Shown here: one piece after another, positions 6,393 through 52,776 of the stretch | Layout: each line of letters starts with the position of its first letter | How positions within the stretch are numbered: the first letter of the stretch is position 1 | DNA from: Tetmemena sp. SeJ-2015 | Lineage: Eukaryota > Ciliophora > Spirotrichea > Sporadotrichida > Oxytrichidae | DNA length: 64,000 nt | Reading direction: 5' to 3' | NCBI GenBank assembly: GCA_027382625.1 | Contig: JAJKFJ010022058.1 | Span: 1 to 64,000, forward strand | Position numbers and translations under genes: made by a program | The notes under the pieces: generated by a model | What the model saw: only the letters and a program-made list of their open reading frames with translations | Told to the model about the DNA's origin: nothing | The model's database searches: none

Positions 6393-9300
6393 ATGGAATA
6401 AAATAATTAGGAGAGTGATGTTCCATAGAATACCAATTTGAAATAGAAAGTAAAGCAAATCCTTTCAGAGACTACTAATTAAAATATAATTATTCTACTT
6501 CACTTAAGAAGGCAATTAAATTGGCAGACGAAGAAGTCGATCAGTTCATCAGCAAACATCAAGCAGAATCTAAATGTATAAATGTTATGTTTAAATAATC
6601 AGCTGACTACCTTATTGAAGCGGAAATAATTAGACTAGAAGTTTACAACAAGTTTTAAATGGCTTTCAAGATAGAAGGCAAAATTTTTGCTATTGTAAAA
6701 GATTTTAAGGATAAAAAATTTAACCTTACTAAGAATGGAGAATTTCAACTCTAGTATCTTTATAAATATATTTTCTTATATGTTTTACAATTCTTTTATT
6801 ATACCCATTGAATTATTACATAAGAAATAAAGTAAAATAAAAATAACTTTACTGAAATAAAAATGACATTTGAGAATATTTTAAGGTATTTCATTAATTT
6901 TTTCTTCAAATAAGATGATATATTTTAATTAAGTTCAATTTTTAAATAAAATCTTAATTCTTCATACTTTAACAGTTAATAAATGATCTTGTAGTGATTC
7001 TGCTATTCTACCTCTTAAATTACAAAGTGTTCCTATCCAAAGCTTGTCTTATTTTTATAACTCTTTCATATTTACAGCTTAGTAATTAGTAGATACGCTA
7101 CAAAATGAGTAAGAAAACTGGAAGCAAATAGTAAACATCTTGCTTAAGATCAGTCATGTGCTTTGTTTTTTGAAACAACACAAGGAGGCCATTTCTTTAC
7201 TCGAAAGAGCGGAAAATATTATCCTAAACAAGAGTTTAAACTAAGAATAAAGTGGGAAGATAGCACTTGTATATTCAGAACTGGCTTATATTGCTTTTAT
7301 TAAAAAATGAAACAATACTCTTGATAGTATAATTTTAAAAATAATCACTTGTGTAATTGGGATATTGTCATTTTATTTATTCAAAGCCTTATCCTACAAA
7401 GAGAAAGCTGAAACTATTTTCGAAAAGAAAGAGAATTACTATCAATTGATATTTTTATATCTTTATTGATGTGGCTACCTCCAGCTGGTAGATGTGACCA
7501 ACGCGAGGTCTGCTGAAAAACCTACTGGTAATGCCTCTAGAGTCAAATGTTAATAAAATTAAGGAGCAAGTTTACCTCTTATAAGCGCATGCCTTGTTCC
7601 ACTACTGGTGTCTCAAACTTATCTGCTTCGAATTATGTCTTGCCAACCCAGAGACCTTCAGATAATCCACTCTGCTATGGAGGCCTTGAACGGCAGGGAT
7701 TTTTAGCCGCTCCTAAGTGCAATGAGTGGCAACGCCGAATTCTCTTGCTAATAGAGTCATCCTGTCACTTAGAGCAGGAACTAGACTAGAGAGTATAGAG
7801 TCGGAAACAAAAGTATCTGCAGTTTCATAAGGACTATGCCATTATTTAATATGGCAGGTAGGCATATTTAATAACCAAACTAATATAATCGAGTGGGTTT
7901 AATAATCTCAGCTCTTACTAATCCCAAATGTCTTTTCACGGATTAATTAATTTATACCCTAAAATTATAATTCTTATTTCACTATCAATTGATGAAACTC
8001 GTATGGAGATTCCAAACTTCTTAGGGATAGCTCATGTGTGAATAGACTAGCTTGACCACTCAGATTGCAATTTGGACTAAAAAATATTACGAGTCAATTG
8101 ATTTATTCAGTTAAACAAATAATATTATTTAAAATTTAAAATAAATACTAACTTTAAAAACTATTTTTTATTCTCTCTGGATATGATAATCAAACTTTTC
8201 ATTTTAAATGGACAAATCATTAAGAAAAGGTATTCAAAAGGAATTATAAATAGGTAAAAATTATTATATACTTAAACTTTATTTGATAAGCAGAGTTCTC
8301 TCAAATTTTTTGAATCATTTTTCGAAAAGTTGAAGTACTCCTTTTAATCATCCTTAATTATCAGAACGCCCCTCAATGATTTTGAAGTTATTCTCTAAGA
8401 CTATGTGCAAAGACTTTAGAAAGCATTTGATGTTGAAGATGTTGCTGCTTTAGAAAAAGAATGCCATCCTTATATTGCTCTCTACTTTCAAATTAATCAA
8501 CACATTATAGATTAGCCTTGATTAGATGATCAATATAAATATCTAAGTGGATTTCTTCTGTATATTCAGAGCTTAGAATAACAAACTAGAGATAGATTTC
8601 ATTTTCATCGTCACAACATGATCTCTAAAGCAAGGAAAGATCAAAATGGGAGATTGATTAAGCACATCCTTTGTAAATAACCTTATTTACTGCAAGCATC
8701 TAAAAACTTAGAGGTAAGTAATCCTTGAAAATTATCATCTTATTTTTATATTATTTTGAGTTTAGCTCTAATTATCACACGTTAACCGACAAACTGAAAA
8801 TTAATCCCACTTTATAGTTTGAGTGAAGGTAGATTGGGAACTCATTTATAAAATGAGATTCTTCCTACGGAGCTTCGTAAATGAGAATAGCACATAGAAT
8901 AAGACACAAGAAGATTTAAAACCCCAAAACCCCATAATATGATAAGAAAGTGAAAATAAGTTTTGTATAATTAATTACTTTATTAATACTTAAAATCATG
9001 CTAAATTTTAACCCTAAACAGGCACTCTAAAGTCTTCTAGGAAGGTGACCTTGACGTCTGTCTCATATTCTCTGAATTTTATATCTGCTTCCTCTATCAT
9101 ATAAAAATGAGTGTTAGGTTTCATAGGTTGCTTGATTATTACTTTGTTTACTAACTTTTTTTCAAAGGTTCTGAAACCTTGTCTATCTTACAGTGTCTTG
9201 TTGCGAATTATATGCATCATCTTCACTTTTCACACTAGTAGTATTCCTCGGTTTCATATCGCATTCAAGTATGATTGCAACTATAGACCAAATGTCCCCC

Positions 9301-12300
9301 TTCACTTAACCGTTGAGCCAAGTCTGTCTCTATGGGAAGTAGCCTGCAGTTCTTGCACCGATGCTTCCTCAATGTTTTCTCTTCTTACAACTCTGTTGAA
9401 GTCTATGACAGTTGCTCTGACTGGTTCAAAGTTTATCATGATGTTCTCTGGCTTGAGATCTCTGTGCACGAATCCCAACTCATGCAACTCTAACTCCATC
9501 ACTCCTCTAACGAGTCAGTGAGAATAGCAGGAAGCTAGCACTTGTTGCGCCTCGTGCTGAGAAATTCTCTTTAGTGTGATCTCCCATTAGGAAGGCGAAT
9601 GGCGATGTAATCATGATCGATAAGAACACGAGCAAGATGAAGAACGTACTAGCTCAAGTTTTTGTCCCTCGATTCTCTCAACACTGTCAGTTCGTTCGCG
9701 AACTAAGGACCTCTCTCTTCCTTCTTTTCAAATGTTTTCGTAAGGGAAGATCTTGTAAGCATCTCTTCTTGTATGATGGTGTCTCTTCGCTTCGCATCAG
9801 CAAGGTGGAGGTAATTTTGAACACTCCTCCAAAGTTACAACTCTCTCAAGCATGGAGTCTTGCTTCGAGCTAGCTGAAACTTTACTGAACCATACACTAA
9901 GGCTTCTGATTCAATGAACTCAATCTTCCTCTTCTTCTCTTCTTGCTTCCTCTTTAGTTGAAAAACCTTGTCAAGGTATCGTGAGCTTGGCCCTCTTAGC
10001 TGGCCCATTTTAAGTTTCTTTAATCCTCAAATTACGAAACTCGCCAATGTGCTTCCTTGTTGTAACTTGTTTCTTAGCTTAGGTGGTTGCCATCCCTTAA
10101 ATTCAAATTTTTTTTTTTTTTTAAATTATGAAGAGCCGCCACTTATTATTATGTATGCTGTTGCTTAGGTGCAGAGCACTCACGAGAACTTCAGAGGGCA
10201 AAAGATGTCAGTTATTGATGTTCTTCCTCTTTCTTAATTATTAGATTGCTCCATATTTATCTCTTATTTCTCTTGATTTGCTACGAATTAAGTTCAAACG
10301 CAGTTAGTAGTGCTACTAATTCCGTTGGGCAACCATGTTAGTTATATCGACATCACGAAAGGCTTGAAATAGCTTCTATTAATTTCATTGCAACGCGATT
10401 GAACTGCTATTAATTAAGTTGCAACATATTGCTACTAATTAAATTTTAAGTATAACTAGTATTAATTTAATGGAGCCACCACATATAAAAAGGAGCTCCA
10501 TCTTCACAACTTGCATCTGATTCGCTTAGTTCTCTAGCTCTATCTATTTCAGCTTGTAATCCTATAGGATCTCATTATTAAATAGTAAACGCTCTTCCGA
10601 TCTGTTCGGATCTAGATCAATAACAATAACTTTGATTTTCAAATAGGAAATCGAGTACTCGAGCAAGAATTAGTGGGAAAACTTGGAATGTTAAGCGATT
10701 AAGAGTGGAAGCGAAGAGTTTAGCAACAGGTTCCGAAGCTCTTCCGATCTAGGTACCTCACTTAGCAAGGTAAGAGGCTCTCATCCTATGGAGTAACAAT
10801 AATCTTAGTTGGTTTGTTCCTTCCGACAATGTATGGAACAAAGATCTCGTTCCTCAAAGCAATTCTTGCTGATGAGAAGAAAGCTCTCAAAAACAATCGA
10901 TGTCAACATGATGGAGAGATCCCAAACTATCCTGAGATCTCAGTCACTATATGTATGACGATGCGATTGGGAGATCGGAGGTTGCTCCTATTTCCTATCC
11001 TAACAAGGACACTTCTCACAACATAGTTGCCAGAACGAAGGGTTTTCTTTGGCGTCCCTTGCTACTGTACGTGCGAGTAACTCAAGAGATCATTGAAGAT
11101 GCAAACACCACACAGAAAGAGATTCTAAGTAGAGGAGAACGACCAAAAGAAGCAAGGAATAGTTTATCAGCGACGAATGTTTTGAGCAGCTTCAGAAGTA
11201 TCCCTACTTCTCTAGTAGTTAGAGTTTAACTGTGTAGAAGAAACCTGGCACTGCATCTACTTATTGAAGGAAGACAAGGTATTCAGGAAGCACGGAAGCA
11301 AAATACAAGCATCGAAGTGAGCAAGCGTCTATCACTATAAAAACTTAGGGACGACGAGTGCACATAGATGCGGGAGCAAGTTCGAAGATGAGGAAGCTAG
11401 GTCCATCTGGCCGCCACAACAGAAGAGAGAAGGAACCTCTTAAGAATCCCTTCTTCCAGATAAGCAAAAGTGACTTAAGTCAGTTATTAAAGTTAAGCTT
11501 AAATACTTTTTCCTAAAATATTCACTCTACCTTATCTCGCACATAACTTTGTCTTCTCTTGTTCACTCTCTTACAACTACTCACTAATAAATCCTCTGTA
11601 TCGATAGCTTAATCATGCATCAACTGATAGAGCTGCAGGTGCGGGTCCCTTAACTAAGTTCCAGCAGTAAAACTCATGCCCGTTGAACTCTGGCGAGTAT
11701 GGAACATTAAAAACAGGAGTGTGTGTTCAACTCAGCGTATGCCTTCTTCGCTTCCTCTTTGTCTTGTGTACGCTAAGGTTGTCAACGAGTAGAACGATCT
11801 TACCGTCTGTGATCTCTGTGCTCTTCCGATCTAGGAACGCAACATACTGCTCTCGCTTGATAAGATCGGAAGAGCTAAGCTTCTAATCCTGAGTCTTCGC
11901 TGATCCTGCAAGTAACGAACTTGTAGTTATATTTACTTTCTACTCGTAACTTCTATGTTATCGTGCTTCTTGTACCAACTCTTCTGCCATGAGGTGTTTT
12001 GTGTGTGAAACAGCTTCGTCAGCAACATACAACTTCAACGCATCCCTCCCACCTGAGCAGCTAGTCGTAAATATATTTCAGATTATTATAATAAAATGGC
12101 TTAGTGAAGTCTATAACGCGCTTAACTCGATTCACAGTTTTGTACGTTATGCCATTTCAACGATAGATGTTTGCTATTGTCTACGGAGAGATCTTGAGAT
12201 AAGGAAACTATTTATGGAAGATCTTCGCGCGCTACTCCAAACTGAAGTGCGCTTAGTGGCGAAGAGTTTGAGGATCAAATAAATAATTGATGTGCACATT

Positions 12301-15300
12301 TTGAAACTTAGAAGTGCGATGGAACAGCTGCCACTCCTAACTTTCTCATCTGCAAAGCAACTTTCAAATGCGAGATTTAGTGCGCGCTGGCACTCTTCAC
12401 ATTTTGCGATAGAGTTGAATGTGTTGAGAACTGGCTATTACAACTGATAAGGGTGACTACATCCATACTTTAGAGTCAAAATGGAAACTGAGATATAATA
12501 TCAGTTAGTTAATACAACAAAATAAGAAGATCAAATATTATAAATAGCCAATAGCAAATCTTTTAATGAGGATGAGAATAAATTTACTAGAAATTATGTA
12601 TTTTTAATTAAAATTTGATCATATTGATTCGAAATAGAAAATTTTTAGATTCTCTGATTTTGAAAAGAAAGTACGGTTTCCTTTACAAGGGCTACAAGAT
12701 TAATCCCATATTCAAATTAACTCTTATAATCATCCACTCAACTTTATTAAAAATTAGGAATATATTTCAATTTATAATTTAAAACTCATAATGGCTGAGT
12801 GAGGAATTCAGAACTACCCTCTCATCAAGCAAGTTATTCTCTACTAATATCTAAAGCATAAAGAGGTAAGTAAACCTTCAAGCTTATTTTCTTATTATGG
12901 ATACATTGTTTAGGTTTAGCCCATAAATAATTTCATCTATCCATTAAATTCTCGAATAAATGAGATTTTATATTAGTGCAATTCGACATTTTGGAACTCT
13001 TCATGACCTTATACTTTTAGGATAGTACATGAAGTCAGTCAAATGAGAATGCTATTACCTTTCTAAAATGTAAGATATTGAATAGTTTTGTTAAAGATGG
13101 ACTTTAGACCAAAGCGAGGGCAAGTAGGAAAGATTAAAGATAATGCAAATATTCCAGAAAGTATTGAATGAAATAAAATGTCTAACACGAAAAGAGTAGG
13201 CTTCTAAGCTAAACAAATGCAAAATCTAATAAGTTGCAAATAGAGCTTCAAACGAATAAATGAGTGTATTTATTTTCTCAATGACCTAGTCGTATTTATC
13301 CCATATTTCCAAACTGCAACTGATATATTCCTTCTATTCATGTATGGCATTATTTGAATTGAATCTCTTTCTTTTCTTGACATAGTAGTTATTTTATTGG
13401 CTAAAATTCTTCCTCATTATTAAAGTGTCTGCATTTATCACCATCCACTTTATTTCCTCCGATTTGATGATAGAGTTTTCTAGAATGATCAAAAATGAAG
13501 ATCATTTGCCTCAATTATTTTTAAGAATGAGGTGACTTAAAGTTTGCCATTACTTCTTTTATTTAATTATTTATGTGAACTAATTAAGCTCTGTCTTGTA
13601 ATTAAGAGTCGCTACATTTTAAACTAATTAAATTAGTAATAAACTATTCGTATTTGACCTATAATAAAGGAATTAATTATACACAACTTATTTTCACCTA
13701 CTTATCATATTATGGGGTTTTTATTCTCACGTCTTTAAACTCATGTACGATTATCAATGACTTAATTTATATAGGACTGATGATCTGAGTGAGGGTAGCT
13801 AAACATAACATAACACAGATCAATAATTTCCTAAAGACATAAAAGAAGGTAAATATCAGGGATAGAGACAGGAAAACCTAAATCAGGGTCAAATTAATAT
13901 ATTCAGCAGTATATAAGCATAATTTCGAACTAATTTTGTGTATTTGTTTTTAATTACATAATCGTATTTTATCCATAATTTTAGAAATATTATCATTAAA
14001 AAACCTTATTTTTCTTTCTATTGATTTCTTTTGAAATTTAGTCGGATTTATACTATTAAATTTAAGCAGGATTTTCAAAATTTTTAACTGATAGAGTGAC
14101 TGTTGACCTACGTTAGCTGTGAGCAGGCTGGGTTTCCTGATGGAGAGATCCTGATATAGTGGCCTTTTTTAAAGTTCTATATTCTCGCCGAAATTTAATT
14201 GAAAACCCGAATTTTAATAAAATAATTAAGAACATCTCTAAACTTTTAACTTTACCGGATTCGTTTATTCGTTTATATTAAGGCGTGACCATCTCTACTA
14301 CGGCACCTGAATTTCCACTAATCCACCGCAGCTAAACTTAGAGATCAGGTCTGTCAGGGTGTCACCGCGGTCCAACATGAACGATCTCGCCTCTGAGCGC
14401 CAACAATATCAGGAAGCCGGAGTGATACATGGCCAGTGCGGAGTGCCCCCCAGGGGATGAGGATTCGAACCTTGCCGGTGACCAGTGACTGTGTGCATAT
14501 GTGAGACGGTGTTTGCAGTGAGGACTTGGTAAGGATGAGTAGAGCAGCAGGAACAGTGAAGGACGATTCTAAGAGGTCACCCTCATCCCCTTGGGGGCAC
14601 TCCGCACTGGCCATGTATCACTCCGGCTTCCTGATATTGTTGGCGCTCAGAGGCGAGATCGTTCATGTTGGACCGCGGTGACACCCTGACAGACCTGATC
14701 TCTAAGTTTAGCTGCGGTGGATTAGTGGAAATTCAGGTGCCGTAGTAGAGATGGTCACGCCTTAATATAAACGAATAAACGAATCCGGTAAAGTTAAAAG
14801 TTTAGAGATGTTCTTAATTATTTTATTAAAATTCGGGTTTTCAATTAAATTTCGGCGAGAATATAGAACTTTAAAAAAGGCCACTATATCAGGATCTCTC
14901 CATCAGGAAACCCAGCCTGCTCACAGCTAACGTAGGTCAACAGTCACTCTATCAGTTAAAAATTTTGAAAATCCTGCTTAAATCTATAATATTAAAAACT
15001 CATTTTTGTAAACTTTCTAATGAAATCACTTAAGACTCTGCATAGCTTTAATCCTGTTGAGCTAAGGAACTACCTTAGATAAGCATAACAGACCATGATC
15101 GAATTTATTTCTCCCAAAAATCCTATGATCATGGCCGAATTTTACTTATCCTTCCTTTCAATAGTCGAGCTAGTTTAAAATGCTCAAGAAATTGCCGTCT
15201 TGTAAATAGAAATGTCTTAAGTCATTATAAATTACTATTCCTTTATAAATACTTCAGCTTATTTTGAATCTTTGATCAATCTTATTTTTAAATACGATGA

Positions 15301-18300
15301 GGATAGCATCTACTACTAATAGAAGATGTATCCTTTCATAGAATATGCTGTTGAAAAGGGCTAAATGAGCATGGAGTAGCTTTACAAATACTTTAAAAGA
15401 GCTCAGCTTGCAGCAGAAATGGACATTGGATTTGATAGACAATATTATTAATTTATAGTACTCTAGCTACAGAATATAAGAAAGGAATTATCAATTTAAA
15501 GATCATGTAACCGCACACATTTATTGAGGGCTTTGAATAGAAAGACAATTATTTGTATTGAATAGGCTGTGGACATATTAGAAACTGAATTAGATGTCAA
15601 AGACAAGATGAGCTTGTTGAAGCATAAGCTGCAGATTACCATAGTGGCCGAAAAGTAAAGCACTTAAACCTATAAAAAGATTATAAGGATTTTGTTGATG
15701 TTTACGACGAGTATTTGCAAAGAAAGTAGTAATATGGTCCAGAGGATATCATAAAGATGATGAAGTATATTGACATCTTCGTAGAACTTCTTATCCTATT
15801 AATCTTACTCCAGTTTTTATTTTTATCGAGGAGAACAACTTTCAGGTTTATACCGTGTTAGTGAAGATGTAATTTTTTTGCAAGTCTATAGGAATGAAAG
15901 AAAATGAGTTAAAGTACACCATTAAATTAAGAGATACAGATGTTTCAGGAGGAACTTTTTAGCTAAGCCCTAAACAATTATACTTGATAATTTAATAAAA
16001 AAAGAGAATTACATTAATTAAATAGAGCAAAAAAGAGGCAATTCATGTGCGACCATTTACAATAATTATTACACCATTATATTAATCATAAATTTATATC
16101 AATGCAACTTGTGCGTGGGAGATCTCATCTAAAAATTTATAACCGACACAAGTTAAGATGGTGGAGAAGATGATGATGAGGATGAAGGTGAAGTGTGCAT
16201 GGCAAGTTTCGATGTAGAATCGAGCTATGAAGATATTTTAAGAGGAACCTCATATTAATTTTGGAATAGCAATTAAACAATCAGCATTTCTAAGGGGCGA
16301 GGGTTCATGGATTTGCAAATTTAAATGCCACCATTTTAAGGCACTCTACTTATCATTTTAATTAATGATTGATTTTAATAAATTCTTCTCTATATCAAAT
16401 AAGAAAGTATTTTTTATAAGTTAATCTCAAGATCTTAAAAAGAAATATGGGATGAATAGAAATAGATGATCACATAAATAACTCTTTAAATACAATTGTT
16501 CAAATATGCATAAGCAAACTGACTAGTATTTAAGCATTAGTGAATGTCATCTCTATGTTTTAGTTCATATTTTGAATTCCTGGTCAAAATTTATGAAGCT
16601 AGTTTAATGGATATAAGTCTTTCCATTTCACTTTAAGTTTCCTCATTACTTGTAAATTGTCTTACATGCCATTTCTAAAATTATTTTTACTATTAAGAAT
16701 ATTATCTTACCTTAACTCATTGTTTAGATAAGAAGTGCTTCAAGTGTTAGTATTTACAAAAAGGTTTTTGCATTCTGAATACTGTTTTGAATTGCAAGAG
16801 CTGTTTCAGCTCATCTCTTTCAAAACCCATTTTATTTAATCATATACCTAATTAATTAATTTTATTTTTAATCAGCTATATTAATAAAAAAAATCACTTT
16901 TGTATTTCTAGAGTTATTTATGTGATAATCTATTTCTATTCATCCCATAATTAACAAATAAATTCCTTCGATATCATTTAATTTTAAAAGATGAATGCAA
17001 AGATTAAAATTGCAAATTACGATTTCAAAAATGAGAAGATTACCGTTCAAGAAGCTTTAAAATAGTTTGATGAACTCGAGAAAGAAGTGAAAGAGTAAAT
17101 ATGTATTTTTAGATTTTTTTTAAGACTAAAAGTTAGAAGAGAATGAGGATCTGCTGTTAAGAGAAATAGATAAAATGAGAGCTAAAGCATGTCTAGTTTT
17201 AATATTTTTATTTCAAGTATTAATTTAAATGGCTCAAGATAGGTGAGAAACAAAAAGCACTCACTCTATTATCAGAAATAGAGAAGCAATATCTGCAGCT
17301 CAAACAAAGCAATCAACTCAATAAAGTCAAAGAGATTTCTTTAGCCAGTCTATGGGTTAAGATGATTGTAAATAACATTTATTTTGGGTGGTGGGTCCCC
17401 CACCGCACGTGCGGTCCCGGACCGCACAGGGTTTGCCCACACCGCACGTGCGGTCCCGGACCGCACAGGGGTTTCCCCACACCGCACATATGCCCCAGAC
17501 CGCACGTGCGGTCTGGGGAAGTATGTGCGGTCCCGGCACCGCACGTGCGGCTTTCCCTACCGCACATATATTGACCCGACCGTACATATATTTCAAGTCA
17601 TCATAAATGTTCTCTGTATCTTAATCAACATGTTTCACACATGAATTTTAATAGGCTAGATTGGTGTTCTTATCTTAGCAGATATTATTACAAATTTAAT
17701 AGGTATAACAGCTTTATGTAACATTGGTATATTGTCATAAATTTATTTGTCAATATACAAATGTTAGGAAAAGCAGTTTACCAAAAAAAAAATTTTAAAA
17801 TAATATCAAATAATAGTTTTTTAATCAGATTTTTAAAACCATTTTAGTATTAAAATTTAATTTAGAAAAAGGTGTAAAAATATCTGTTTTAATAAACCCC
17901 ATCAAGATAAGCAGAAAACCCAAAAAGCCAAAAATCTGGAAAAATTTTCCCTTCTAATTTTTAATGATAACTTTAACTATATCGCCCCTTTCACATCCCA
18001 AAGACCTAGACCTCATAACCTTTTTGATAGGCTTTGGGTAGTCCGATTTCTTCAAAGTCCACCAAAGAGGTGGAGTCCACCGAAGTGAGAATCGGGGCCA
18101 AGCAAAACAGCCGAAAAGTAGTTATTTGCCATGGGGCGGGCGCAAGGGGGACCCAAACAATAAACCATAAAATCCCCTGCTCAGCTACAATAAAGTGGCC
18201 AAATTCAGGGGCCCAAAAAAAACCACCTGGGGTTGATGACTTCCAAAAAGGAAAACCCCAAAACCCGTTTTCATCCTGAATCGAGGAGACCCAATTTTAA

Positions 18301-25400: not shown

Positions 25401-25905
25401 CTAGGTCCATCTGGCCCAAAAAGAGAGGGGAAAGGGAACCCCTTTAAAAATCCCTTCTTCCCAAAATAAGAAAATGACTTAAATCATTAAGTTTTAAACT
25501 TAAAAAACTTTTTCCCAAAAAATTCCCCTCTACCTTATCTCCACTTTAAATTTGTCTTCTCTTTTTCCACTCTCTTACAAATACTCCTATTTAAAACCTC
25601 TGTATCGATAGCTTTAAACATGCTTTAAATTTATAGAGCAGGAGCTTCTTATAGTGTCCCCTTTAAATAAGTTCCAAAAAATCAATGCCGTTGAACTCTT
25701 TGGGGAGATGGAAGGCCCTTCGCTTCCTTTGTCTTTTGTAAGCTAGGTTGTCAACGAGTAGAAACGGGGAAAAGTCGTTGATTTTCTCTGAGCTTCTTAA
25801 GGAAAGCAACATTTCTGCTCACGCTTTTATAGGGGTTTAGGATGAGGGACTAAATTTTAAGCCCGAAAATCTTCACTGATTCCTGCAAGTAACGCACTTT
25901 TAGTA
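22485..25905. mobile_element. second TBE copy, right end missing, sequence degraded
   Basis: It begins CCCCAAAACCCC and then follows the first TBE closely in order: terminal repeat, kinase region (about 22.9-23.6 kb), middle region (about 24.8-25.4 kb) and transposase region (about 25.68-25.9 kb). It stops at about 25905, where the first copy still has about 1.8 kb to go; no right terminal repeat was found. Many differences from copy 1 are local replacements by base runs, suggesting poor consensus. Confidence 0.75.
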
Positions 25906-26460
25906 AATATATTATGATAATACTGGACAAAAAATGAGAAAATCTCAACATCTCTTACAATAACAACATTCACGAAGTTGCCTTAAGACAATATTGAGCC
26001 TAGGTCTAATAAATCTCCGATGGTTGCTATCAAGGAAGAAATAAATTTGATATCACAAAACTAAAACCAGACAACAATAACAATGCAGGTTATTACAATA
26101 TAAAGTGAATTATATCAGATGGAAATGACGACTGGGATGAGAAAAACATAAATGATATGCAGAGTTTTTTTTCAACGAGACCCCTTATAAACTTTACGTC
26201 ACTAAGCAATATTGTCACAACCTTCGACACTTAACTTCCTTTTCCTCCATTTCAAATTTAAAAATCATAAATATTAAAATAGCAGTAATTAAGTTAAGGT
26301 CTGTCGCTCTCAATCTCTACCTTATTTTTGAATTATACTTTTACAGCAACAATAATTAATTAATTTTATCTGCAATAACAAGGATTTATATTATAAAATC
26401 TTTACTTCTTTAAATTAGCTACATAAATGATTATATTTTAATTATGTAAGTTCCTTAAAA
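25906..26460. other. remnant-unit spacer, no clear gene
   Basis: AT-rich sequence to the right of the truncated TBE. No family block could be matched confidently. Confidence 0.3.
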
Positions 26461-42431: not shown

Positions 42432-42469
<38 letters not shown>

Positions 42470-45400
42470 AGTAGTAGTAGTAGTAGTAACGATTAACCAC
42501 ACTTAGCCTTTCAGGGTCTATAAATAGAGAGATTTGATTGGCTGGTTGGTTTATAATATTTAATATATTAATCACAGCCACGATGGCCACCCCGAGCGCC
42601 AGACACTAGAGACCCCCGAGCTCGCGCTAAAGCCTCCTCAAGGTCAGTCACTGTTTGACACTCTGAACCCCGAGTCCATAGAGGAACTCAACCGCAGTCC
42701 TTGCGCCTATAGCAATGATTAGGAATGGATGCAAGACCTCAGCGAGCCCTCGCTGCACTTGGATATGTCTTACGCCAAGCCTCCCACAGCCAAGCCTCCT
42801 GGTTATAGACGCTTCGCCGATCTGCCAACGCGCGAGGGTTCCGAGCCCTCATGCTCTTACACATGCAGCCAGAGTGAGGCGACTCCACTAACTGCTCGCT
42901 CGGTCGATGCGTGCCCAAGGTTCTCCATTGTGTAGCACACCCTCCAGCCCTTCACCTCCAGGCTCCTCCTCGACGGCGACTTGCACTACCAGCGCTACCT
43001 TCAGTTCCCTGGCCCCTCCTACGCATTCATCTCCAAGCTCGGCAAGGTGCCTGACCTCTTGGACATTTTGAAAAAAGCATGAAGGCAGCGAGCTCTGCCC
43101 TTGAGATGATGATCATTACGCGGTGTAAGGATAAGGACCTGGAGGACCAGTGCGTTGAGGCTTACGCAGGGTATGAGGCAAGGCTTACGAGTGGATTTTC
43201 AATCGAGATCTGAATATTCAAACCGTAGCGCCGGAGTACTAAAGGTCGTCGATGCAGCTAATGACATAAATAAACAACTCACAATCACTCAAGAAATGCT
43301 TCCTCAGGCCCGATCAATCAGAGAGGCCGAACAGCTCGCAGCAGAGACGCTGAAAAGCTCACATTGGCTAGAACAAGAAGACAGGGCCAAGCTGAGAGAC
43401 AAGCTCATGTCAAGGTTGAGCCGCGATGACTGCTTCGTTGGCCCTCAAGCAGTACAGGACATGACAAGGCTTCACGAGAGACTCGCCAGCGAGTACGAGA
43501 TTATGAAGGGTGCGCCTGTGGAGCTTCTATTTCTCACGGACCTGGTGACCTCCTTCATCGCACATCCGGGCAACAACTTGAGATAGCCAGCTGAGGCACA
43601 GCAGGCAGAGGTGGGAAAACAGCCCTAATCAGCTAGGAAAGATGGCATGATCAACCAAGGTCAACCTCATGCGCAGATGAAGTTCTATCTCTAGGATGTT
43701 AAGCATACCGGACTGCTCCGGCAGTTGATCGCAGCCGCAGAGAAGGATCAGCAAGTGCCAGAAGTGAAGCGGCTGGAGAGGAGGGACCATCACCCGCTAT
43801 TCATCACACACTTGGGCTAGCCCAGAGTATTCAAGAAGAACGAGCTTGATAAGATCGCCAAGGAGGTCGAGGCAGTGGAGCAAGCAATCTAAGATGGTCC
43901 ACTCACGATCGTCCAGAAGAAATTCGATGGCCCCGTGTCGTGGAGCAACATGGCCTTCTAGATCAAAGCACCAGCTGGGTTGATCGAGCTGCGATTGGTC
44001 AGCATTCTAATTGGCTGGAGAGAGAGGGAGTCAGAGGTGCTCGAGCAAATCAAGAGCAAGGACATCTACCTGAGATTCGAAAATGAGGAAGAGGTGAACC
44101 GCTTCCCGCACTCCCTCGGACAACTCAGGAAGCAATCCTCAAAGTGGGCAAAACTAAATGGTCAACTAGCACAACAGGGGATTAGCTCAACCAGTGGAAG
44201 GTGGACTCGTCGATGTACACGACCTCGCGGCCAGCGTGCATCCACCTGGTGATTGCCATCAAGTAGATCTGCTGCTGCTCCTGGAGCTCGCGCTCCCTCT
44301 GGTCCTTGCGGATGTACCTGTACGCGCTGGATCGGTAGGAGACCTCGTTGCGACGGAAGAGCTTGGCCAGCGTGGCTGGGGAGGCAAGTGGGGCTCCGAA
44401 CTCCTCGTGATAGAAGTGGGTGCGCTCCTTGAGGCTCATGTGGGCCGCCTCGCTGAGATGCTAGGCCGTGGTGATGCGCTGCTCGATCGCGTGGGGGATC
44501 TTGCTCTCTGGCCCTTTTATGCGCCTCCCCGACTCGTAGATGAAATCGTTGCGGCGCCACCGCTGGACGCTCACGGCCACCGTGCTCGGCTTGATTCCTG
44601 TGACCTTGTCTACCAGAGTGTAGCTCATGAGTATGTGCTCGTCGTGGCTGAGCGTCCCGTAGCGCAGCAAGATCGCCAAGAGCTGCTGATCCAGCGAGTG
44701 TGTCATTCGGATCCTGAGCTTCGGCCGGGCTCACCTCTTCCCTTTGAGAATGCCATCGGCGCCACAGTAGCTCTCGAGGTAGGGGGCGAGGTTCTGATTC
44801 GGGATGTAGCGGGTTGCGCTCTGAGCCAATGCGGGGTCACCTCCTGGTCCAAGATATTCAGTGAGTGTCCTCAATAGCCTTCGTGCACAACCCCTGGCGT
44901 CCATTAAGTTTATTAAAGTTGCTAATGATTAATTCACACTTATGATTACCCCCCTCAATGTTTCTATACATAAGCTATAAGATTTTATATCAGAGTGAAT
45001 TTTATTTTGAAGAGCTCATTCATGAGTTACAAGCGATTCAAAAGTTATCAGAAAACAGAAATTATAAATTGTGTAAATCTAAATTATTTTTTTATTTATT
45101 GAAACCCAAGTGTTATAATAGAAGTTAGAAATTAAAATAGGTCAAATAGGAATAGTTTATTGCAAATTTAAACAATGTAAAATACTAGAGTAAAAAAATA
45201 AATGCCTTTTAAACTAAGCAGAGAAATTGTAAATTAATACATTATCACATATAATTTACGAAGTGCAACTGATCTTTTTCCTCCATCATATTTGGTATTA
45301 TTTTTTTAAGAATCACAGTTATTTCTATTAATTTTAGTTATTTTTCTGACTGAAATTTTTTATTATGATTTGATTTTTATCATCGACAATGTTTTTTTGA

Positions 45401-46783
45401 TGAGATGGTAGAGTTTTTGATATGAGGAAAGACGAAGTTCATCTATCTCATTGGCAATCACAATAAAGAAACTTAAAATTCACTTTCTATAAATAAGAAT
45501 TGCCTTACATCTTGAAATTTTGATTTAACTAGCTACTATTTTAATTGAGTGCACTCATAGAAACTTAAAGTAAAATAAAATTTGAGGAATATAATTAATA
45601 ATCAATTTCAAAACCAGCACTAATTACAGTTCTAGTTAAGAAACCGAAGTTATTATCCTATGTAAGTTTGCTTTGTTTATATTGTTTGTAAGGATATTTA
45701 TAGCTCAGTGGGTAACCACTATCATTATAATTTACCTACCATAGAAACTTAAATTTAAGAGGACCACTTTAAACATTAGAAAATAATTTTCCTGATTAAA
45801 ACTTGAATTAGTGCAACCTAAGTATGAGGTATATTCATTATAATTTTGAGTAAATATATAATTTTCATTTATTTAATCCATTATCTTAAATAATAAACGA
45901 ACATTATATAATAAAAGGTTTTACTTAAAAACCGGTTAAGTGATGAAGGGCTTGGATAAGCTATATGAGATAGAGACTATTTTAGGTTAAATGATTCCTG
46001 CTGAAATGGGATAAGAAGCTGCTGCCCTTCTAAGAGTTCAAGCTTTAATTAAGATTTAATATGTATTTAATTGCATGATATATTTTTAAATTAATAGATT
46101 ATAAAATTCATATAATTATAGATTGTTAACATAGAACTTGAACTTATCGCTCATTTATAAAATTTATATAAATAATTATTATTATTATTTTTAAATATAA
46201 ATTTAGCTTGGGAGTTATAAATCATTTTTCTATATCTATTTCTAAGAAATCTCCTTAAATTGTATTCGTAATGAGATTTTCTTAAAATAATTTTCTTCTC
46301 TAAAATGTTCTTAACTTTCATAATTTTAGTTGTTTAATAATTTCTTTTCAGTCAATGAATCATAAATTTTTTTATTTTATATTATTTTATCATTTAATCA
46401 TAACTTTTTTAAACTTAAATTTTATGAAAAAATTCCATTTGATTTCTATTTGAAATTGTTAGAGAAATCAAACAAATAAATATACTTATTTAATAACAGA
46501 GACTAGCAAGGGATCTAGAATTATAAAAAGGCTAAGAGCCTAGAGTCACAAACTATTGTTATGCCTAAGATGATTCTAATAATCTATTATTTCTTAATTG
46601 ATTACCCAGTTGGAGGAACTGCAGAAGAAAGTGGAGATTCTGGAATCTATGACTGCCATTCAGAAGCTGAGAAAGTACAATCCGAATGCATTCTACGGGG
46701 GGTTGGCTGCGATTGGATTCTATTTTATATTCTCTGCTTTGATGATCTCGAGTTTAGTCATCCTTAGAAAAACAAGATAGTGA
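37374..46783 (+). CDS. array unit 4: diverged TPR-like tail-anchored protein gene
   Basis: ATG at 37374 (MDKQQDINFVKDTASLRTKV). Blocks: RLIEAENVRLYGYTKYKIPE (37494-37720), TPR-like helices EYDKAQQYALRAKSILKQN (38027-38300), KYKEKAEAVYKKKNKYIAIY (38850-39050), DDIYLAWFEVEKADQLETVG (39810-39940), EDSIFYYWYIMQYN with AAEVDIGPKREF (40380-40560), LIEILEREYDDKDPQAYDRF (about 40650-40737, followed by a GT-AG gap of about 52 bases), KDESVKYFQKLLEINAAEW (about 41000-41060), TKTISLEDAILKLKLF (41885-42000), the coiled segment (45940-46056), then QLEELQKKVEILESMTAIQK and an anchor from about 46700 ending ILRKTRQ, TGA at 46781. Same block order as units 1-3 but far less similar. A GC-rich transposon splits it at 42.3-45.0 kb. 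Confidence 0.6.
37459..37493. other. IES, pointer ACTT (unit 4)
   Basis: ACTT at 37455-37458 and 37490-37493; removal of 35 bases gives QIFNEATSQKTFLSEIDE in frame, at the same protein position as in units 2, 3 and 5. Confidence 0.8.
38004..38031. other. IES, pointer AATTA (unit 4)
   Basis: AATTA at 37999-38003 and 38027-38031; removal gives LLKAQNYVDAEKPEYSNEW in frame. Unit 5 has pointer AATTAT at the matching site. Confidence 0.8.
40740..40790. other. intron or IES, GTAAAA...TTTTAG (unit 4)
   Basis: A segment of about 52 bases starting GTAAAATTAC and ending CGTTTTAG separates EELVQR from ILTLG. GT-AG removal keeps the frame. Whether it is an intron or an IES cannot be decided from sequence alone. 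Confidence 0.45.
42425..42488. repeat. TAG trinucleotide microsatellite
   Basis: About 20 TAG units with one interruption (GTAAGTAG), inside the left part of the GC-rich transposon. Confidence 0.9.
42583..44252 (+). pseudogene. unidentified transposon ORF, several frame changes
   Basis: GC-rich coding sequence read with TAA/TAG as Gln. The first frame (to TGA at 43080) contains SLFDTLNPESIEELNRS and LHLDMSYAKPPTAKPPGYR; it is one base off from the ATG at 42583. A shift at an A-run (about 43071) continues with MKAASSALEMMIITRCKDK, and a second shift near 43195 leads into the long frame ending at TGA 44250, with LEQEDRAKLRDKLMSRLSRD and PVELLFLTDLVTSFIAH. Mostly charged and helical, with no domain I recognise. 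Its 3' end overlaps the transposase tail to tail by about 130 bases. Confidence 0.5.
44125..44706 (-). CDS. partial DDE transposase (Tc1/mariner-IS630 group)
   Basis: 193 codons with one internal TAG and TAA read as Gln; TGA at 44125-44127. The N-terminal half holds two helix-turn-helix units (VTGIKPSTVAVSVQRWRRND and ASPATLAKLFRRNEVSYRSS), then REVVYIDESTFHWLS, the strand with the first catalytic Asp (about 44185-44215). The second Asp (DN..H) and third acidic motif (PYSPxxN) are absent; the frame runs about 19 more residues into sequence antisense to the neighbouring gene. The protein is thus truncated to DNA-binding domain plus the start of the catalytic fold. ATG at 44706 is the first in frame after a TGA. 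It could act as a repressor or be a deletion product; both are inference. Confidence 0.65.
44731..44904 (-). CDS. small ORF in the GC-rich transposon
   Basis: 57 residues beginning MDARGCARRLLRTLTEYLGP and ending YCGADGILKGKR before TGA at 44731. It lies just upstream of the transposase on the same strand, with 24 bases between them, and its codons match the GC-rich style of its neighbours. It may be a separate small protein or the frameshifted N-terminus of the transposase. No domain recognised. Confidence 0.4.
   Translation of the reverse strand: MDARGCARRLLRTLTEYLGPGGDPALAQSATRYIPNQNLAPYLESYCGADGILKGKR
44981..45935. other. germline spacer within unit 4
   Basis: AT-rich. The piece 45580-45660 recurs at about 59296-59390 in unit 6, so at least part is ancestral to the array. 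A tRNA-like TAGCTCAGTGG at 45703 is discussed under rejected items. Confidence 0.45.
46057..46124. other. IES, pointer AGATT (unit 4)
   Basis: AGATT at 46052-46056 and 46120-46124; removal gives QALIKIVNIELELIAHL in frame, at the protein position where units 1-3 use AAGATG and unit 5 uses GATT. Confidence 0.75.
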
Positions 46784-47130: not shown

Positions 47131-50100
47131 ATGGAGGAATTACAAAATCAAAATATGCTTTTAGATACATAAGAACTGAAGGAAGAGGTTAAAAAGATTT
47201 TTAAAGGAACAACTTCACATATAAATAAAGTACAAGTAAATATAATTGATATATAATAGTTGGAATTTTAATTAAAATCGTTGATTGGTTAAAATAATAA
47301 ATGGAGAGTTGCAACTTCGTGTCATTTGAAATCGTAGATTCACCCCCTCATCTGCAGCTTGTTCGATAGCTTATCAAAAAATAATATGAGTTTCTTCTTT
47401 AATCATCTTCTTAGCACCTCTCAGCAGCAAGATATGATGTGCGCATTCCTCTTCATCGTAATACTCATCTTCATCAAAACTTATGTCACTTATAACTCTG
47501 TATTGAGCTCTCCCACACAAAAGTTATAGGATAAAAAGTTCTTAGAATTTCATGCTGAATCGAATGGTGTAATTATTATTTAAATTGGACACACTTCAAC
47601 TGCCACTGATTTATTCCATTTTAATTTAATGTCTAATTTAATTCTCTATTTTATTAAATTCTCAGCTAAATTCACTTAAGAGAGGTTTGAATGCAATTAA
47701 TGACACAATAGATAAATTCATACATATTTTAAAAGAAGAGAAATCAAGAGACCCAACTATAAATGAGGACAAATTGATTGAGGCAGAATTTATGAGATTT
47801 CAAGCTTATTTTAATTACTAAATAGTTCAAAAGATTCGGCCTAGAATATACCAATTACTTCAAGATTGGTAAAACAAAAAGTTAAACCTTTCAATAAACG
47901 GTGATTCTTTGATTATTATTTAAATATTTTCTTAACAATTTTATATATTTATAAGCTTTGAAAATTAATTCTTTTAAAAGAAACGGATCTTCTTTTTTAT
48001 AAAAAAAAAATATTTAATTTATTCATATGCTTTAAACATTTTTAGACATTCTAAATTCTTAATATTTGAAATTTATGTAAGTAATAGAGAGCTGGAAATA
48101 CTTTGCTTATTAACCTTGTCTGAAAATCACAAATTTCTCATTAAAGCTCGGAATTATAGATTTATTAAATAAAAATATATGATTTTTTATTGAGAATTAT
48201 GTGGATAAATAAAATCCAACGTTTTCAACACAGTGGAGGAACCTTTATAGGATTCTTTTTAAGTTAGCTTCCATAAATAATGAATTTTAAGAATATGAAA
48301 AGTCAAGAGAGTATTTATAAAGAGCCAAAGAAGTCTTAAAATAGAACAAAGAGAACTATAAAAGTAGCGTCAGACTTGCTTTAATTTATTAAAGTCTCTC
48401 AAATAATCCCAAATTTGTATTTGAACAAAAATATTTTACTTTTGATTTTATTTATTTTAATTCATAATGATCATCGTGGTTATCTTTTATTGTAAGATAA
48501 AGTAAAATTTATGGAGATCTATATCATATCGTATTTCTAAGGCATTAATTATTATAAAAAAAAGAATTTCCTTTTTCTTAAATTTGTAATAAATAATTAA
48601 TATTAGCAGAGATAGTGGAGACTTTATTTAAATATTTTATATCTCTGAATCAAGATTACAAGAAAAAGCTTTCTCTATTGCAACTTTAAAAATGAAACTT
48701 AAAAATTTACTTCCGAACAATGAAGAGCCTTAAGATAGCAGTAATAAAGAATCTAACTTAGTAGAGGAAGCTAAAACCTAAATAGAGAGCAATAAGCCTT
48801 TTTATTCAATAAGGGATTTATTTTATTTCTTAAAATTATTGCAATTCTATCTTAATAATCAAATTCTAAACTTTATAAAGCTTTTTGAAAGTTATAATTA
48901 ATCAAATTTATTTAAGAATTGATTTTTTATTTCTAAATATGTGTTATTTTAATAAAAATAAACTTATTTATAATTATGGGATTGATTAATTCTCTTGGGC
49001 CAATTATTTATAAATTTTATAATTTATTTGCAATTTTCTATATTTAGCATGCATTTCTTTTTTTAGCCTTGTGATTGTATAAAATTAAACTTAAAAATAG
49101 GAGAGATAGAAAGTCTATTATTTAGCGACGGAGGTAACAACATTTAAAAATATTTATTTAATTAAAAATATTTTTAATTATTTTTATTTAGACAAATTTA
49201 TTCAAAGCTATTATAAAAATTTAGCTGATCTGCTTAGATTTATGAATTTTTTTAAAAGAAAGTTTTAAATTTAGATCCAAGAATAATTCTAATCTTTCTA
49301 AAGCCTTTTTAAAATTTCATAATTCCTTATTATTTATAATTTGATTTGAGGTAAGGATTAACCTCAAGAGGAAGCAGAAAGGCTTTTAAAAGATTTAGAA
49401 GTAGTTTTATTTACATCTTTCGAGGTAACTAATTCCAGTGAGCTCAAAATTGAAGAGCACCCTTTGATCGCTCGGTACTTTCCAATTTAAAATAACCTCT
49501 TTTAATCTATCATACTTTATGATTAAGGCAAATTTAAGTTAGTCAAAATAAGATATAAGCTCAATGGAACAGAATATCAAAATTGCAAGAAGAGTTTTAC
49601 TCAAGTTTACTGATCAGAAAAATTCCTTCCTACTTTTTGAACTAGATTATAAATTCATTATGCAAGTTAATTTTCTCTTTTTAGATCTCAAACAGGTTTA
49701 AATATACCGCAAAGCATCACTAAGAATAGATATTGAACTATTGAACATGGAAATGCAAGATATAGTATCCGAGCACTATTCATTATACATTAAATACATT
49801 CATTAAAAATTATAAAATGACTACCCATCTGACAGCATATTCTATTTCTAGAGTTTGAGGTAGATTTAAGAATTCGATTTGGAAAACAATATTGAGAAGG
49901 CAATCAAAATTTATGATTAAGCTTCCTAAGCGGCTGCAATGGACTTAGGACCTAAGAGTAATTATTTTTTTTTGAGCACTCAAACTCCACTTCACACGAA
50001 AAGCGTGCGAATTGAGGATGCGGCAACAGCATACTTTCAGTCAGGGATACCATAAGCAAAAGAATTCAATTTAATTTTAAGCTCTTAGATTTCTTAGATA

Positions 50101-52776
50101 GGGAGTATGAGGAGAGCGATCCAAACGAAATTACTAAATTCAAAGTCTGCATTGATCTTGTTCTTGAGAAGTAAACTTTAAAAAATAAATTTCATCTAAC
50201 AACGTATCATAGAAAGAAAGTTTAAGACGATTTCTATTCGATACAAGGCAGAATAGATGATTTGATAGCTATGAGAGTTAAAAAGTATGCAGACTTATTT
50301 ATTTCATACAAAATGTTTTCAACTATGTAAGACTTTATGATAGATTACTACATCTTTTAAATTTAACATCAGAAATAAATCCACTAGCGTATTCAAATTG
50401 CTAAGGAGCTAGGCTACTCTATTTGAGACTCTTGAAATTAAAGATCACAGTCTTTAGTATTCTATAATTTGCTACAAAATTTGATAACTCATATGTATAT
50501 CGCTAATGATATTCTGAAAACTTTAATACTTAGAATTACAATTTTATATTAACATGGATATTATTAAAATTAAGTTTTGTAAATATTATATATAAAGTCT
50601 GATTCAATTTATAAAATTGTAATTTACTTTAATGCTGCTATTTTATCTGCATTAATTATTTTTTATTTATACTTTAGAATTAAATTAAAATTTAACCTCT
50701 ATTCTCAAGTTCTTTTCTAAATTTAAAAACAACTTTGTTCATTTGAATTTACTTAATTACTTGCTATACTATAGAAAAATGTACGAATTAGATTTTAATG
50801 GATGGTATATACCAGAAAAACTTGAGGTCAAATCAGTTTTCATTTTTTAGTGGCTATGAAGACAAATAATTTATATTTTAAGAAGGCTTTTGGAGCAGCT
50901 AAAGTTTTCGCAAAAGACAGCAAGTAAATTAGGATGACAAATGAAGATGCGATAGTCTAATTTAATAATTCTTTATCTTAAATGTATATTAATTAGAGCA
51001 ACTCGAGGTAGAGCTTCAAAGCGACTTATTATACTTAAAAATTTATTTTATTTTCTTGCTAAACCTTTAATTAAAATTAGAATTAGAATTAAATTTTTGC
51101 AACATGACTTTTGGGATCCAAGTAATTATTAAAATATAATTTTACGATTATTAAGAAGATATCTAATCTGTTTAGAATGTTTCTAATTGTTATATGAATT
51201 TGTAAATATTATAGACATGATGTGCATTCTTAAAGATATCTATCACATGTCTCTAAGCTAAAATTTGATATCTCTGATAACATAAATTAAAAATAGCCTC
51301 ATTTTATTTTCTCTTTAGATTTCTTATGGAAAGCATTTTTAAAATTAATAAATAGATTTTATTAGCATGAAATTCATTTATAAATAATGTAAAACCAAAA
51401 AAATAACCCTTATTTATTTGACCAAACTAAAGCTAAGAAATTCACGGTAGAGATAGATGAAGTTTAAACTGCCTTGGCCAAGATATAAACCCAATTACTA
51501 ACTTCAGATATCTAAAAAATGAATCTATATTTTTACACTAAAATACTGATTAAAATATTTAAATATATTTCTAGATAAAAAAGCATTTAAAATAAATATT
51601 AATTTCGAAAAGGACACTTTAAATTATTTTTCCCCATTTAATATAAAAGTCTATGAAAATAAATTCATATTTTTATCAAGAATATTTCTGGAGTTTATAA
51701 AAGAAAGGGTGACATACTCTCATCCCTGGAGAAATGGTACGATAACATTAAGCTTTTGGAACTCATGACTAGTTTTGGAATTGAATTAGAGACTATAAAC
51801 TATAAGAAGATCAAAGTACTGCTATCGATTCATGTTTTATTGAGGTTTATTATATATAATTTATAGATTGCAGATATTGAATTTGCACTTATTGCTTCAC
51901 TATAAATTTTTAAAGTTTAATCCCTTTTAAATTATTTTGAACATTATTTTTAAAGATAATAAAGAAAAAATAATGAGTTTTAAGTTAAAAAAATAACTTT
52001 ATTTATTTTAATTTACTTTATCAAAGAAAATAATTTAAAATTCCATATTTCATTTGAAGTTTAGAACTATGAAAGAATTTATAAATTTGAATAAATTAGA
52101 ATAAATATCTCTATATTATTTATATGTAAATTAATAATTGAATAACAGAGATGCAAGTGGTATTCGCAACTTGAAGGAAGCGATATTGTTAACATCCTCA
52201 GCATTCTATACTCCTAAGATGGTAGACTTAAATAATTTAAATGTCGATTATTATCTTAAATATTATTATATAAAACACTTTAAATTGCATTAAGATTCAC
52301 CTCTTAATTACTATATATTAACTAATTAAATTATTTTTATTGTCTTTTGATAAAAGTCTTGAAATTAATCTTATATTAGCTCCTTAATTTAAATTTTTTA
52401 TGTGAGAGTATTAGAGAATTATTTAATAAAATAAAAATAGTTCAAGAGATACAAAGGCAATATATTTAATTATGAAATTAAAATTCGATGATAAAAACAC
52501 CCCTTCTATTTAGAATTATTGTTTTGACTTTTTCTAAGATAATTTTATTCAACCACTCATGATTTAATTAATGAATAAATTATAATTTTAAGACAAAATG
52601 GAACAGCTAAAGAAGCATATGCTCAAACTTGATTCTATGTCAAGGATTTCAAAGCTACGAAAATACTAGCCAAGTATCTATTACGCTGGAATGGCTGTAG
52701 GATTTTAATTTATATAAAACTATTCTCATCCTTACTAGTAGCAGGAATTTACTTAGCAAAGTCACTTAAGAAGTGA
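47131..52776 (+). CDS. array unit 5: diverged TPR-like tail-anchored protein gene
   Basis: ATG at 47131 (MEELQNQNMLLDTQELKEEV) is a clear start after AT-rich sequence. Blocks: INDTIDKFIHILKEEKS and KLIEAEFMRFQAYFNYQ (47676-47920), ELEILCLLTLSENHKFLI (48090-48157), TPR-like EYEKSREYLQRAKEVLKQNK (48201-48400), an acidic Ser/Glu-rich block with EEPQDSSNKESN (48640-48830), DSIFYFQSLRQIQEFDLENN with AAMDLGPKSNY (49830-49970), KVQDDFYSIQGRIDD (50215-50330), FTVEIDEVQTALAKIQ (51435-51500), GDILSSLEKWYDNIKLLELM (51705-51830), IADIEFALIASLQ (51866-51910), KWYSQLEGSDIVNILSILY (52150-52220), then MEQLKKHMLKLDSMSRIS and the anchor ending YLAKSLKK, TGA at 52774. The best-preserved diverged copy. Confidence 0.65.
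47219..47675. other. 457-bp IES, pointer TTCAC (unit 5)
   Basis: TTCAC at 47214-47218 and 47671-47675. Removal gives IFKGTTSLKRGLNAINDTID in frame, the same site as the 23-base IES of unit 2. The interior 47537-47665 recurs at 22197-22325 in the remnant unit. Confidence 0.75.
48158..48200. other. IES, pointer AATTAT (unit 5)
   Basis: AATTAT at 48152-48157 and 48195-48200; removal of 43 bases gives LIKARNYVDKQNPTFSTQW in frame. Confidence 0.8.
50172..50212. other. intron or IES, GTAAAC...CATAG (unit 5)
   Basis: A GT-AG gap between DLVLEK and KKVQDDFYSI; splicing at CATAG keeps the frame. It is the counterpart of the 40.74-kb gap in unit 4 and close to the AGTA IES of units 1-3. Confidence 0.4.
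51831..51869. other. IES, pointer GATT (unit 5)
   Basis: GATT at 51827-51830 and 51866-51869; removal gives KVLLSIADIEFALIASL in frame. Confidence 0.65.
52703..52746. other. IES, pointer AGGA, inside the membrane anchor (unit 5)
   Basis: AGGA at 52699-52702 and 52743-52746; excision gives IYYAGMAVGIYLAKSLKK then TGA. The same protein position as the TGGA IES of units 1-3. Confidence 0.8.

What the first reader, a model, noticed from the sequence alone, without database searches (positions are those of the whole stretch)
6477..52746. Orthologous IES sites keep their place while pointers change between paralogs
At one protein position (after E-T/A-T) the IES has pointers CTACT (unit 2), ACTT (units 3 and 4) and TTCAC (unit 5), with lengths 23, 23, 35 and 457. 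At another, units 1-3 share AAGATG, unit 4 has AGATT and unit 5 GATT. At the anchor, TGGA (units 1-3) against AGGA (unit 5). Each excision restores frame. This is a natural series showing pointer sliding and IES growth within one locus.
Basis: seen in the sequence. Interest (0 to 1): 0.92.

Follow-up and report, generated by a model that had tools for sequence, protein, structure and literature searches.

The report
Same excision sites, drifting excision signals
In this ciliate germline stretch, related copies of one gene are interrupted at the same places by segments that the cell would likely cut out, and the short repeats that would likely mark each cut differ from copy to copy, while some segments are longer because they hold mobile DNA.

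Summary
Observation confirmed with corrections. Units 1-5, a sixth copy at 54225 and three relatives on other contigs encode one ~760-aa protein family (TAA/TAG read as Gln, TGA stop), broken by repeat-bounded segments whose removal restores the frame. At the E-T site the pointers are CTACT, ACTT, ACTT and TTCAC as stated (23, 23, 35, 457 bp); relatives show ACTT and CTACTT, and unit 6 has a likely 22-bp case. TGGA/AGGA is right. 'AAGATG' is really TTAAGATG(G), 8-9 bp.

Sites are shared far beyond chance: between clades 8-14 shared, about 1.5-1.9 expected. The 'growth' to 457 bp is one copy of a ~416-bp high-copy repeat, not gradual; unit 2 was enlarged by a TBE-type transposon and a 3.5-kb inverted-repeat element. 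Most useful addition: a ~530-bp segment bounded by a 13-bp repeat is present in units 2 and 3 but absent from five other copies, a likely dated birth of an IES.

Limits: no macronuclear reads are available here; frame restoration alone is weak evidence; at the K-M/A-E-I-E-F site all five window units also allow an in-frame GT-AG intron. Pointer sliding, and conserved sites with changed pointers, are published for hypotrich orthologs. A good new example of a known kind.

The parts
755..4142 (+). Unit 1 (U1), N-terminal end not found in the window
   Evidence: self-BLAST and pointer-aware model, 707 codons, next codon TGA
6393..21337 (+). Unit 2 (U2), 762 codons in 19 pieces (18 modelled excisions)
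27479..33284 (+). Unit 3 (U3), 766 codons in 18 pieces (17 modelled excisions)
37374..46780 (+). Unit 4 (U4), middle third not resolved
47131..52776 (+). Unit 5 (U5), middle not resolved
54225..57650 (+).
6477..6499 (+). U2 E-T site IES, 23 bp, pointer CTACT
27564..27586 (+). U3 E-T site IES, 23 bp, pointer ACTT
37459..37493 (+). U4 E-T site IES, 35 bp, pointer ACTT
47219..47675 (+). U5 E-T site IES, 457 bp, pointer TTCAC
47252..47667 (-). R430 repeat copy inside the U5 IES (ends set by eye from the alignment)
54311..54332 (+). U6 E-T site IES, 22 bp, pointer AAC (weak, 3 bp)
3674..3738 (+). U1 K-M/A-E-I-E-F site, 65 bp, repeat TTAAGATG; GT-AG alternative exists
17365..20935 (+). U2 same site, 3571 bp, repeat TTAAGATG; holds an inverted-repeat element 17386-20875
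32811..32883 (+). U3 same site, 73 bp, repeat TTAAGATGG
46057..46124 (+). U4 same site, 68 bp, repeat AGATT; GT-AG alternative of 59 nt
51831..51869 (+). U5 same site, 39 bp, repeat GATT; GT-AG alternative of 33 nt
4075..4109 (+). U1 terminal site IES, TGGA, 35 bp
21268..21304 (+). U2 terminal site IES, TGGA, 37 bp
33217..33251 (+). U3 terminal site IES, TGGA, 35 bp
52703..52746 (+). U5 terminal site IES, AGGA, 44 bp
7451..7993 (+). U2 Y-Y-Q-L site IES, 543 bp, 13-bp repeat ACTATCAATTGAT at 7438-7450 and 7981-7993
29186..29729 (+). U3 Y-Y-Q-L site IES, 544 bp, repeat eroded to TATCAAT
1268..1280 (+). Empty counterpart of that site in U1 (single ACTATAAATTGAT)
8917..13722 (+). TBE-type element (name recalled) inside a U2 interruption modelled at 8509-15021; U3 has 760 bp there without it

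Best explanation
The window holds a tandem array of paralogous genes interrupted at orthologous sites by short repeat-bounded segments, which are likely IESs that would be cut out of the developing macronucleus with one repeat copy kept. The site of each interruption was inherited through the gene duplications. The repeat (pointer) at a site changes when substitutions, silent ones included, hit either copy or the bases beside it, so that the longest shared word slides by a few bases or shrinks: CTACTT, CTACT, ACTT and TTCAC at the E-T site; TTAAGATGG to ATGG, AGATT and GATT at the K-M/A-E-I-E-F site; TGGA to AGGA at the terminal site. Excision presumably tolerates this because the join is specified by more than the pointer; guidance by maternal template RNA is recalled for this group and was not tested here. 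Large length differences come from single insertions of mobile DNA into an existing segment (R430 in U5, an inverted-repeat element and a TBE-type element in U2). At least one IES was probably born by insertion: the ~530-bp segment at Y-Y-Q-L with a 13-bp duplication, present in U2 and U3 only. Shown: sequences, repeats, frames, site sharing, filled and empty copies, purifying selection on the joined reading frame. Inferred: that excision happens, its exact cut points, and the order of changes.
For: A pointer-aware spliced alignment rebuilds 762, 766, 769 and 778 codons from U2, U3, V1 and V2, and 707 from U1, each followed by TGA and with no TGA inside. V1 scores 1936 against 675-701 for three decoys of V1; U4, U5 and U6 score 412, 374 and 323 against 65-85 for five decoys. 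The joined frames are under purifying selection: dN/dS 0.31-0.47 in all ten pairs of U1, U2, U3, V1, V2, with most differences at codon position 3 in each. Site sharing within 6 nt: U2/V1 12 of 18 and 19, U3/V1 14 of 17 and 19, U1/V2 8 of 14 and 19; 0 of 2000 random placements reached the count in any of nine pairs. Best in-frame repeats at 90 modelled junctions average 4.93 bp against 3.86 after shuffling the segment (highest of 60 shuffles 4.09). Y-Y-Q-L: uninterrupted in U1, V1, V2, U4 and U6. A separate C-terminal fragment at 26541-26617 reads ATTGGAGTTGCA across the terminal site without an insert, like the predicted joined product CTTGGAGTAGCT. R430.
Against: No macronuclear or cDNA sequence was available, and the one protein search (composite unit 4 query) found nothing at E <= 0.001. 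Pointers of 3-5 bp are not unique: 2-15 in-frame joins exist at these sites. 17 of 90 modelled junctions have an in-frame GT-AG alternative within 9 nt, and all five window units have one at the K-M/A-E-I-E-F site. About one modelled junction in ten has only a 2-bp repeat. The middle parts of U4-U6 are not resolved (disagree there).
Confidence: 0.82

Rival explanations
1. The interruptions are spliceosomal introns, at least at the K-M/A-E-I-E-F site, removed from RNA and not from DNA.
For: An in-frame GT-AG reading exists at that site in all five window units tested (71, 3577, 79, 59 and 33 nt) with AG directly before the ATG/ATT; V1 has one too. Feng et al. report introns coinciding with pointers (PMC9797194 section 10, read).
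Against: At the E-T site no in-frame GT-AG of 20 nt or more exists in U2, U3, U4 or U6, one in U5; at the terminal site none in U1, U2, U3, U5. At the K-M site U1, U2, U3 and V1 carry 8-9 bp direct repeats, rare in the shuffled control; an intron needs none. Overall only 17 of 90 junctions have a near GT-AG alternative.
Confidence: 0.12
2. The units are decaying pseudogenes and the frame-restoring repeats are chance matches picked out by the aligner.
For: Many in-frame repeat joins are possible in such AT-rich DNA; U1 and U6 look incomplete.
Against: dN/dS 0.31-0.47 with third-position excess in ten of ten pairs; decoy scores a third or less of the real ones; shared sites; filled and empty copies at the same point.
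Confidence: 0.05
3. The segments grew gradually, by slippage or accretion.
For: Lengths at shared sites differ by a few bases between copies (for example 65-74 bp, 33-37 bp).
Against: The large steps coincide with identifiable inserts: R430 in U5 and V1, the 3.5-kb inverted-repeat element and the TBE-type element in U2, an inverted-repeat stretch 27898-28533 in U3.
Confidence: 0.05

Closest known systems
Pointer sliding / shifting MDS-IES boundaries in hypotrichs (DuBois and Prescott 1995, as cited in Feng et al. 2022, PMC9797194; passages and sections 5, 8, 9, 10 read)
   Same: Boundary repeats at a conserved interruption shift by a few bases through substitutions.
   Different: There between species; here between neighbouring paralogs in one germline array, with several states of one site side by side.
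Conserved pointer positions with different pointer sequences between Oxytricha and Tetmemena orthologs (PMC9797194 section 9)
   Same: [quoted passage not shown] Monte Carlo excess of shared sites.
   Different: Paralogs within one genome; includes filled versus empty copies of one site.
TBE insertions in IESs (PMC9797194 sections 5 and 9)
   Same: A TBE-type element sits in an interruption that a relative has without it.
   Different: That paper found few TBE pointers conserved with non-TBE pointers (27 in Oxytricha); here U2 against U3 shows one inside a single array, with weakly defined ends.
Intron-IES conversion (Chang et al. and Mollenbeck et al., as cited in PMC9797194 section 10)
   Same: The K-M/A-E-I-E-F site can be read either way.
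   Different: Not decided here; no RNA or macronuclear data.

Membership tests
Hypotrich IES with pointers | Segment bounded by a short direct repeat, one copy kept in the product | tested here: met
   repeats longer than shuffled control on average, not unique at single sites
Hypotrich IES with pointers | Removal restores a continuous conserved reading frame | tested here: met
Hypotrich IES with pointers | Segment absent from the macronuclear genome | not testable with these tools
   no macronuclear reads or assembly; protein search found no relatives
Hypotrich IES with pointers | Germline-type genome with TBE-type elements and TAA/TAG = Gln | tested here: met
   inverted ends with telomere-like C4A4 repeats (element name recalled); 34-47 TAA+TAG codons and 0 TGA per rebuilt frame
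Spliceosomal intron | GT-AG ends giving an in-frame product | tested here: inconclusive
   E-T site: absent in 4 of 5 units; terminal site: absent in 4 of 4; K-M/A-E-I-E-F site: present in 5 of 5
Pointer sliding | Repeats at one orthologous site overlap but are shifted or altered between copies | tested here: met
   E-T site; three sites
MITE-like repeat (R430) | High copy number, defined ends, terminal inverted repeats, target duplication | tested here: inconclusive
   4055 first-look candidates, 40 scored at 89-94% apart from itself, nearly all spanning query 17-433; ends similar in inverse by eye; target duplication not shown

The most novel reading that the evidence does not exclude
In the common ancestor of units 2 and 3 a retroposon-like repeat of about 530 bp landed in the coding frame, and its 13-bp target duplication served at once as the excision pointer: an IES born in one step, still 13 of 13 identical in unit 2 and already eroded to 7 bp in unit 3, with five empty paralogous sites as witnesses. 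The same array shows the later life of IESs (pointer erosion, sliding, nested mobile DNA) and possibly a switch between IES and intron at the K-M/A-E-I-E-F site.
Probability: 0.4. Interest if true: 0.72.

Novelty: new member of a known kind. Interest (0 to 1): 0.5.

Why it matters
How a cell keeps cutting at the same place while the letters that seem to guide the cut drift is a standing question in ciliate genome rearrangement. Tandem paralogs in one germline locus offer several states of the same site in one nucleus, so pointer choice, pointer erosion and IES birth can be tested with one set of macronuclear reads, without differences between species.

Tried and rejected
Rejected: unusually strong conservation inside short IESs. 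A first comparison gave IES identities above third-codon identity, but gapped alignment of shuffled AT-rich sequence gives 0.71-0.79 on its own; the high values at the E-T and last two sites go with equally high local third-position identity. Only part of the A-F-I/K-A site stays odd (see noticed). Rejected: C4268 as an independent allele; over 16740 columns it differs from the window at 37, 31 of them in 25736-25869, so it adds no independent evidence. Rejected: ARAGORN tRNA-Pro at 20767-20860, which lies in an inverted-repeat arm. Led nowhere: protein database search (7988 candidates scored, none at E <= 0.001), Pfam on the rebuilt protein (nothing above a curated cut-off), PDB sequences (none), Rfam (none). 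First linear-gap models of U4-U6 overfitted poorly conserved parts; the affine version is better, but their middles are not used. One search also misplaced the U5 E-T join; and direct enumeration give TTCAC.
Full report
What the window is. The window is contig C2988 of a 146-Mb assembly in 5213 contigs. It is AT-rich. It carries elements with inverted ends that begin with telomere-like C4A4 repeats; I recall these as TBE-type. Its genes read TAA and TAG as glutamine and end in TGA.

The family. Self-comparison shows three related units, 1-4.7 kb, 6.2-21.9 kb and 27.3-33.8 kb. Translated comparison adds units at 37.4-46.8, 47.1-52.8 and 54.2 kb onward. Genome searches found relatives on C1915 (V1), C2150 (V2) and C2143 (V3, N-terminal part only), a 100% duplicate of V1's 3' end on C4637, and a near duplicate of the window on C4268. 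A spliced alignment that allows jumps only between identical short repeats, or GT-AG introns, rebuilds 762 codons from U2, 766 from U3, 769 from V1, 778 from V2 and 707 from U1. V1, which did not supply the query, scores 1936 against 675, 687.5 and 700.5 for its reverse complement, reverse and local shuffle; U4, U5 and U6 score 412, 374 and 323 against 65-85 for five decoys. The protein has no Pfam, PDB or database relative that I could find. A repeat-rich helical protein with a hydrophobic C-terminus is my impression only.

The joined frame is real. In ten of ten pairs among U1, U2, U3, V1 and V2, differences are most frequent at codon position 3, and dN/dS is 0.31-0.47. Selection has therefore acted on the sequence with these segments removed.

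The three sites of the finding. At E-T the left copies read GACTACTTATT (V3), GACAACTTATT (U3, V1, V2) and GACTACTAATT (U2), and the right copy reads TTCTACTTCAC in all five. The shared words are CTACTT, ACTT and CTACT, and the segment is 23 bp in all five. U4 has ACTT and 35 bp, U5 TTCAC and 457 bp; U6 is best read as AAC and 22 bp. Two to eight in-frame joins exist per unit; the listed one gives the gapless family product (E-T-T-S-L-K-K and its kin). At K-M/A-E-I-E-F the repeats are TTAAGATG (U1, U2), TTAAGATGG (U3, V1), ATGG (V2), AGATT (U4) and GATT (U5). At the terminal site TGGA (U1, U2, U3, V1) becomes AGGA (U5) at the same bases; V2's model chose another join there. U4 and a stray C-terminal fragment at 26541-26617 run through that point without an insert.

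Chance. Within 6 nt, U2 and U3 share 14 sites, V1 and V2 12, and the six between-clade pairs 8-14, with 1.45-1.93 expected for those six; 0 of 2000 placements reached the count in any of the nine pairs. Repeats at the 90 modelled junctions are longer than after shuffling (mean 4.93 against 3.86, highest of 60 shuffles 4.09), but the aligner favours repeats, and single pointers of 3-5 bp are not beyond chance.

Introns. No in-frame GT-AG of at least 20 nt exists at the E-T site in U2, U3, U4 or U6 (U5 has one) or at the terminal site in U1, U2, U3 or U5. All five window units have one at K-M/A-E-I-E-F. Over all modelled junctions 17 of 90 have one within 9 nt. Feng et al. describe introns that coincide with pointers (PMC9797194 section 10). 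I therefore hold that site open, leaning to IES in U1-U3 and V1 because of the 8-9 bp repeats.

Growth is insertion. The U5 segment contains a copy of a repeat, R430 here, that matches 47256-47672 elsewhere at 89-94% (40 scored of 4055 first-look candidates). Related copies lie in segments of V1, U4 and U1-U3. Without it about 41 bp remain. U2's 3571-bp segment holds an inverted-repeat element at 17386-20875 where U1, U3, V1 and V2 have 65-74 bp. U2 also has a TBE-type element at 8917-13722 in an interruption that is 760 bp in U3 and 147-151 bp in V1 and V2, though the ends of that interruption rest on 2-bp repeats in U2 and U3.

Birth of a segment. At Y-Y-Q-L, U2 and U3 carry 543-544 bp. U2 has ACTATCAATTGAT at both ends; U3 has kept TATCAAT. 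U1, V1 and V2 are uninterrupted there (45-base span), as are U4 and U6. The U1 counterpart is ACTATAAATTGAT. Parts of the insert match other contigs at about 70-84% (57 matches listed, 96 first-look candidates). A 13-bp duplication recalls a retroposon target duplication; I could not fetch the other copies to test this. V1 alone has a 911-bp segment where U1, U2, U3 and V2 have none.

Sequence inside. Short IESs are not specially conserved once the bias of gapped alignment is allowed for. The site outlives its letters.

What is new. Pointer sliding and conserved sites with changed pointers are in print for hypotrich orthologs (PMC9797194: outline, sections 5, 8, 9, 10 and passages read). In six literature searches (listings only apart from that paper) I saw no report of a tandem paralog series of this kind, but the library lacks most subscription journals. 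I rate it a good new member of a known kind.

Noticed in passing
   Followed up: partly
26480-26617: Stray C-terminal fragment of the family between units 2 and 3, with no insert at the terminal site; a similar stretch lies upstream of V1 (26125-26986 match).
   Followed up: partly
1170-1200, 7340-7370, 29078-29108; V1, V2, V3: AATAATCACTTGTKTAATTGGGA is kept in six copies inside or beside the A-F-I/K-A interruption although local third-codon identity to V1 is only about 0.55-0.58. A conserved non-coding piece, or a mis-set boundary.
   Followed up: partly
14057-14986: Inverted repeat with 406-nt arms, 100% complementary, 118 nt apart, inside a unit 2 interruption.
   Followed up: no
5446-6198: Nested long palindromes (247-nt arms 97%, 138-nt arms 100%) between units 1 and 2.
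   Followed up: no
17386-20875 and 42472-44930: GC-rich stretches in AT-rich surroundings, weakly related to each other (19885-20474 to 43060-42472, 59%); their ORFs have no Pfam match.
   Followed up: partly
47252-47667 and kin: R430, an abundant repeat (4055 first-look candidates in 146 Mb); several copies in this gene family lie inside predicted IESs.
   Followed up: partly
61590-62626: An ORF whose start looks like a B-box zinc finger by eye (motif recalled); Pfam gave only a weak match below cut-off.
   Followed up: no
V2 1682-7912; V3 from 1450: V2 and V3 both carry TBE-type sequence near the A-F-I/K-A interruption, so an element may have been inherited by both.
   Followed up: no
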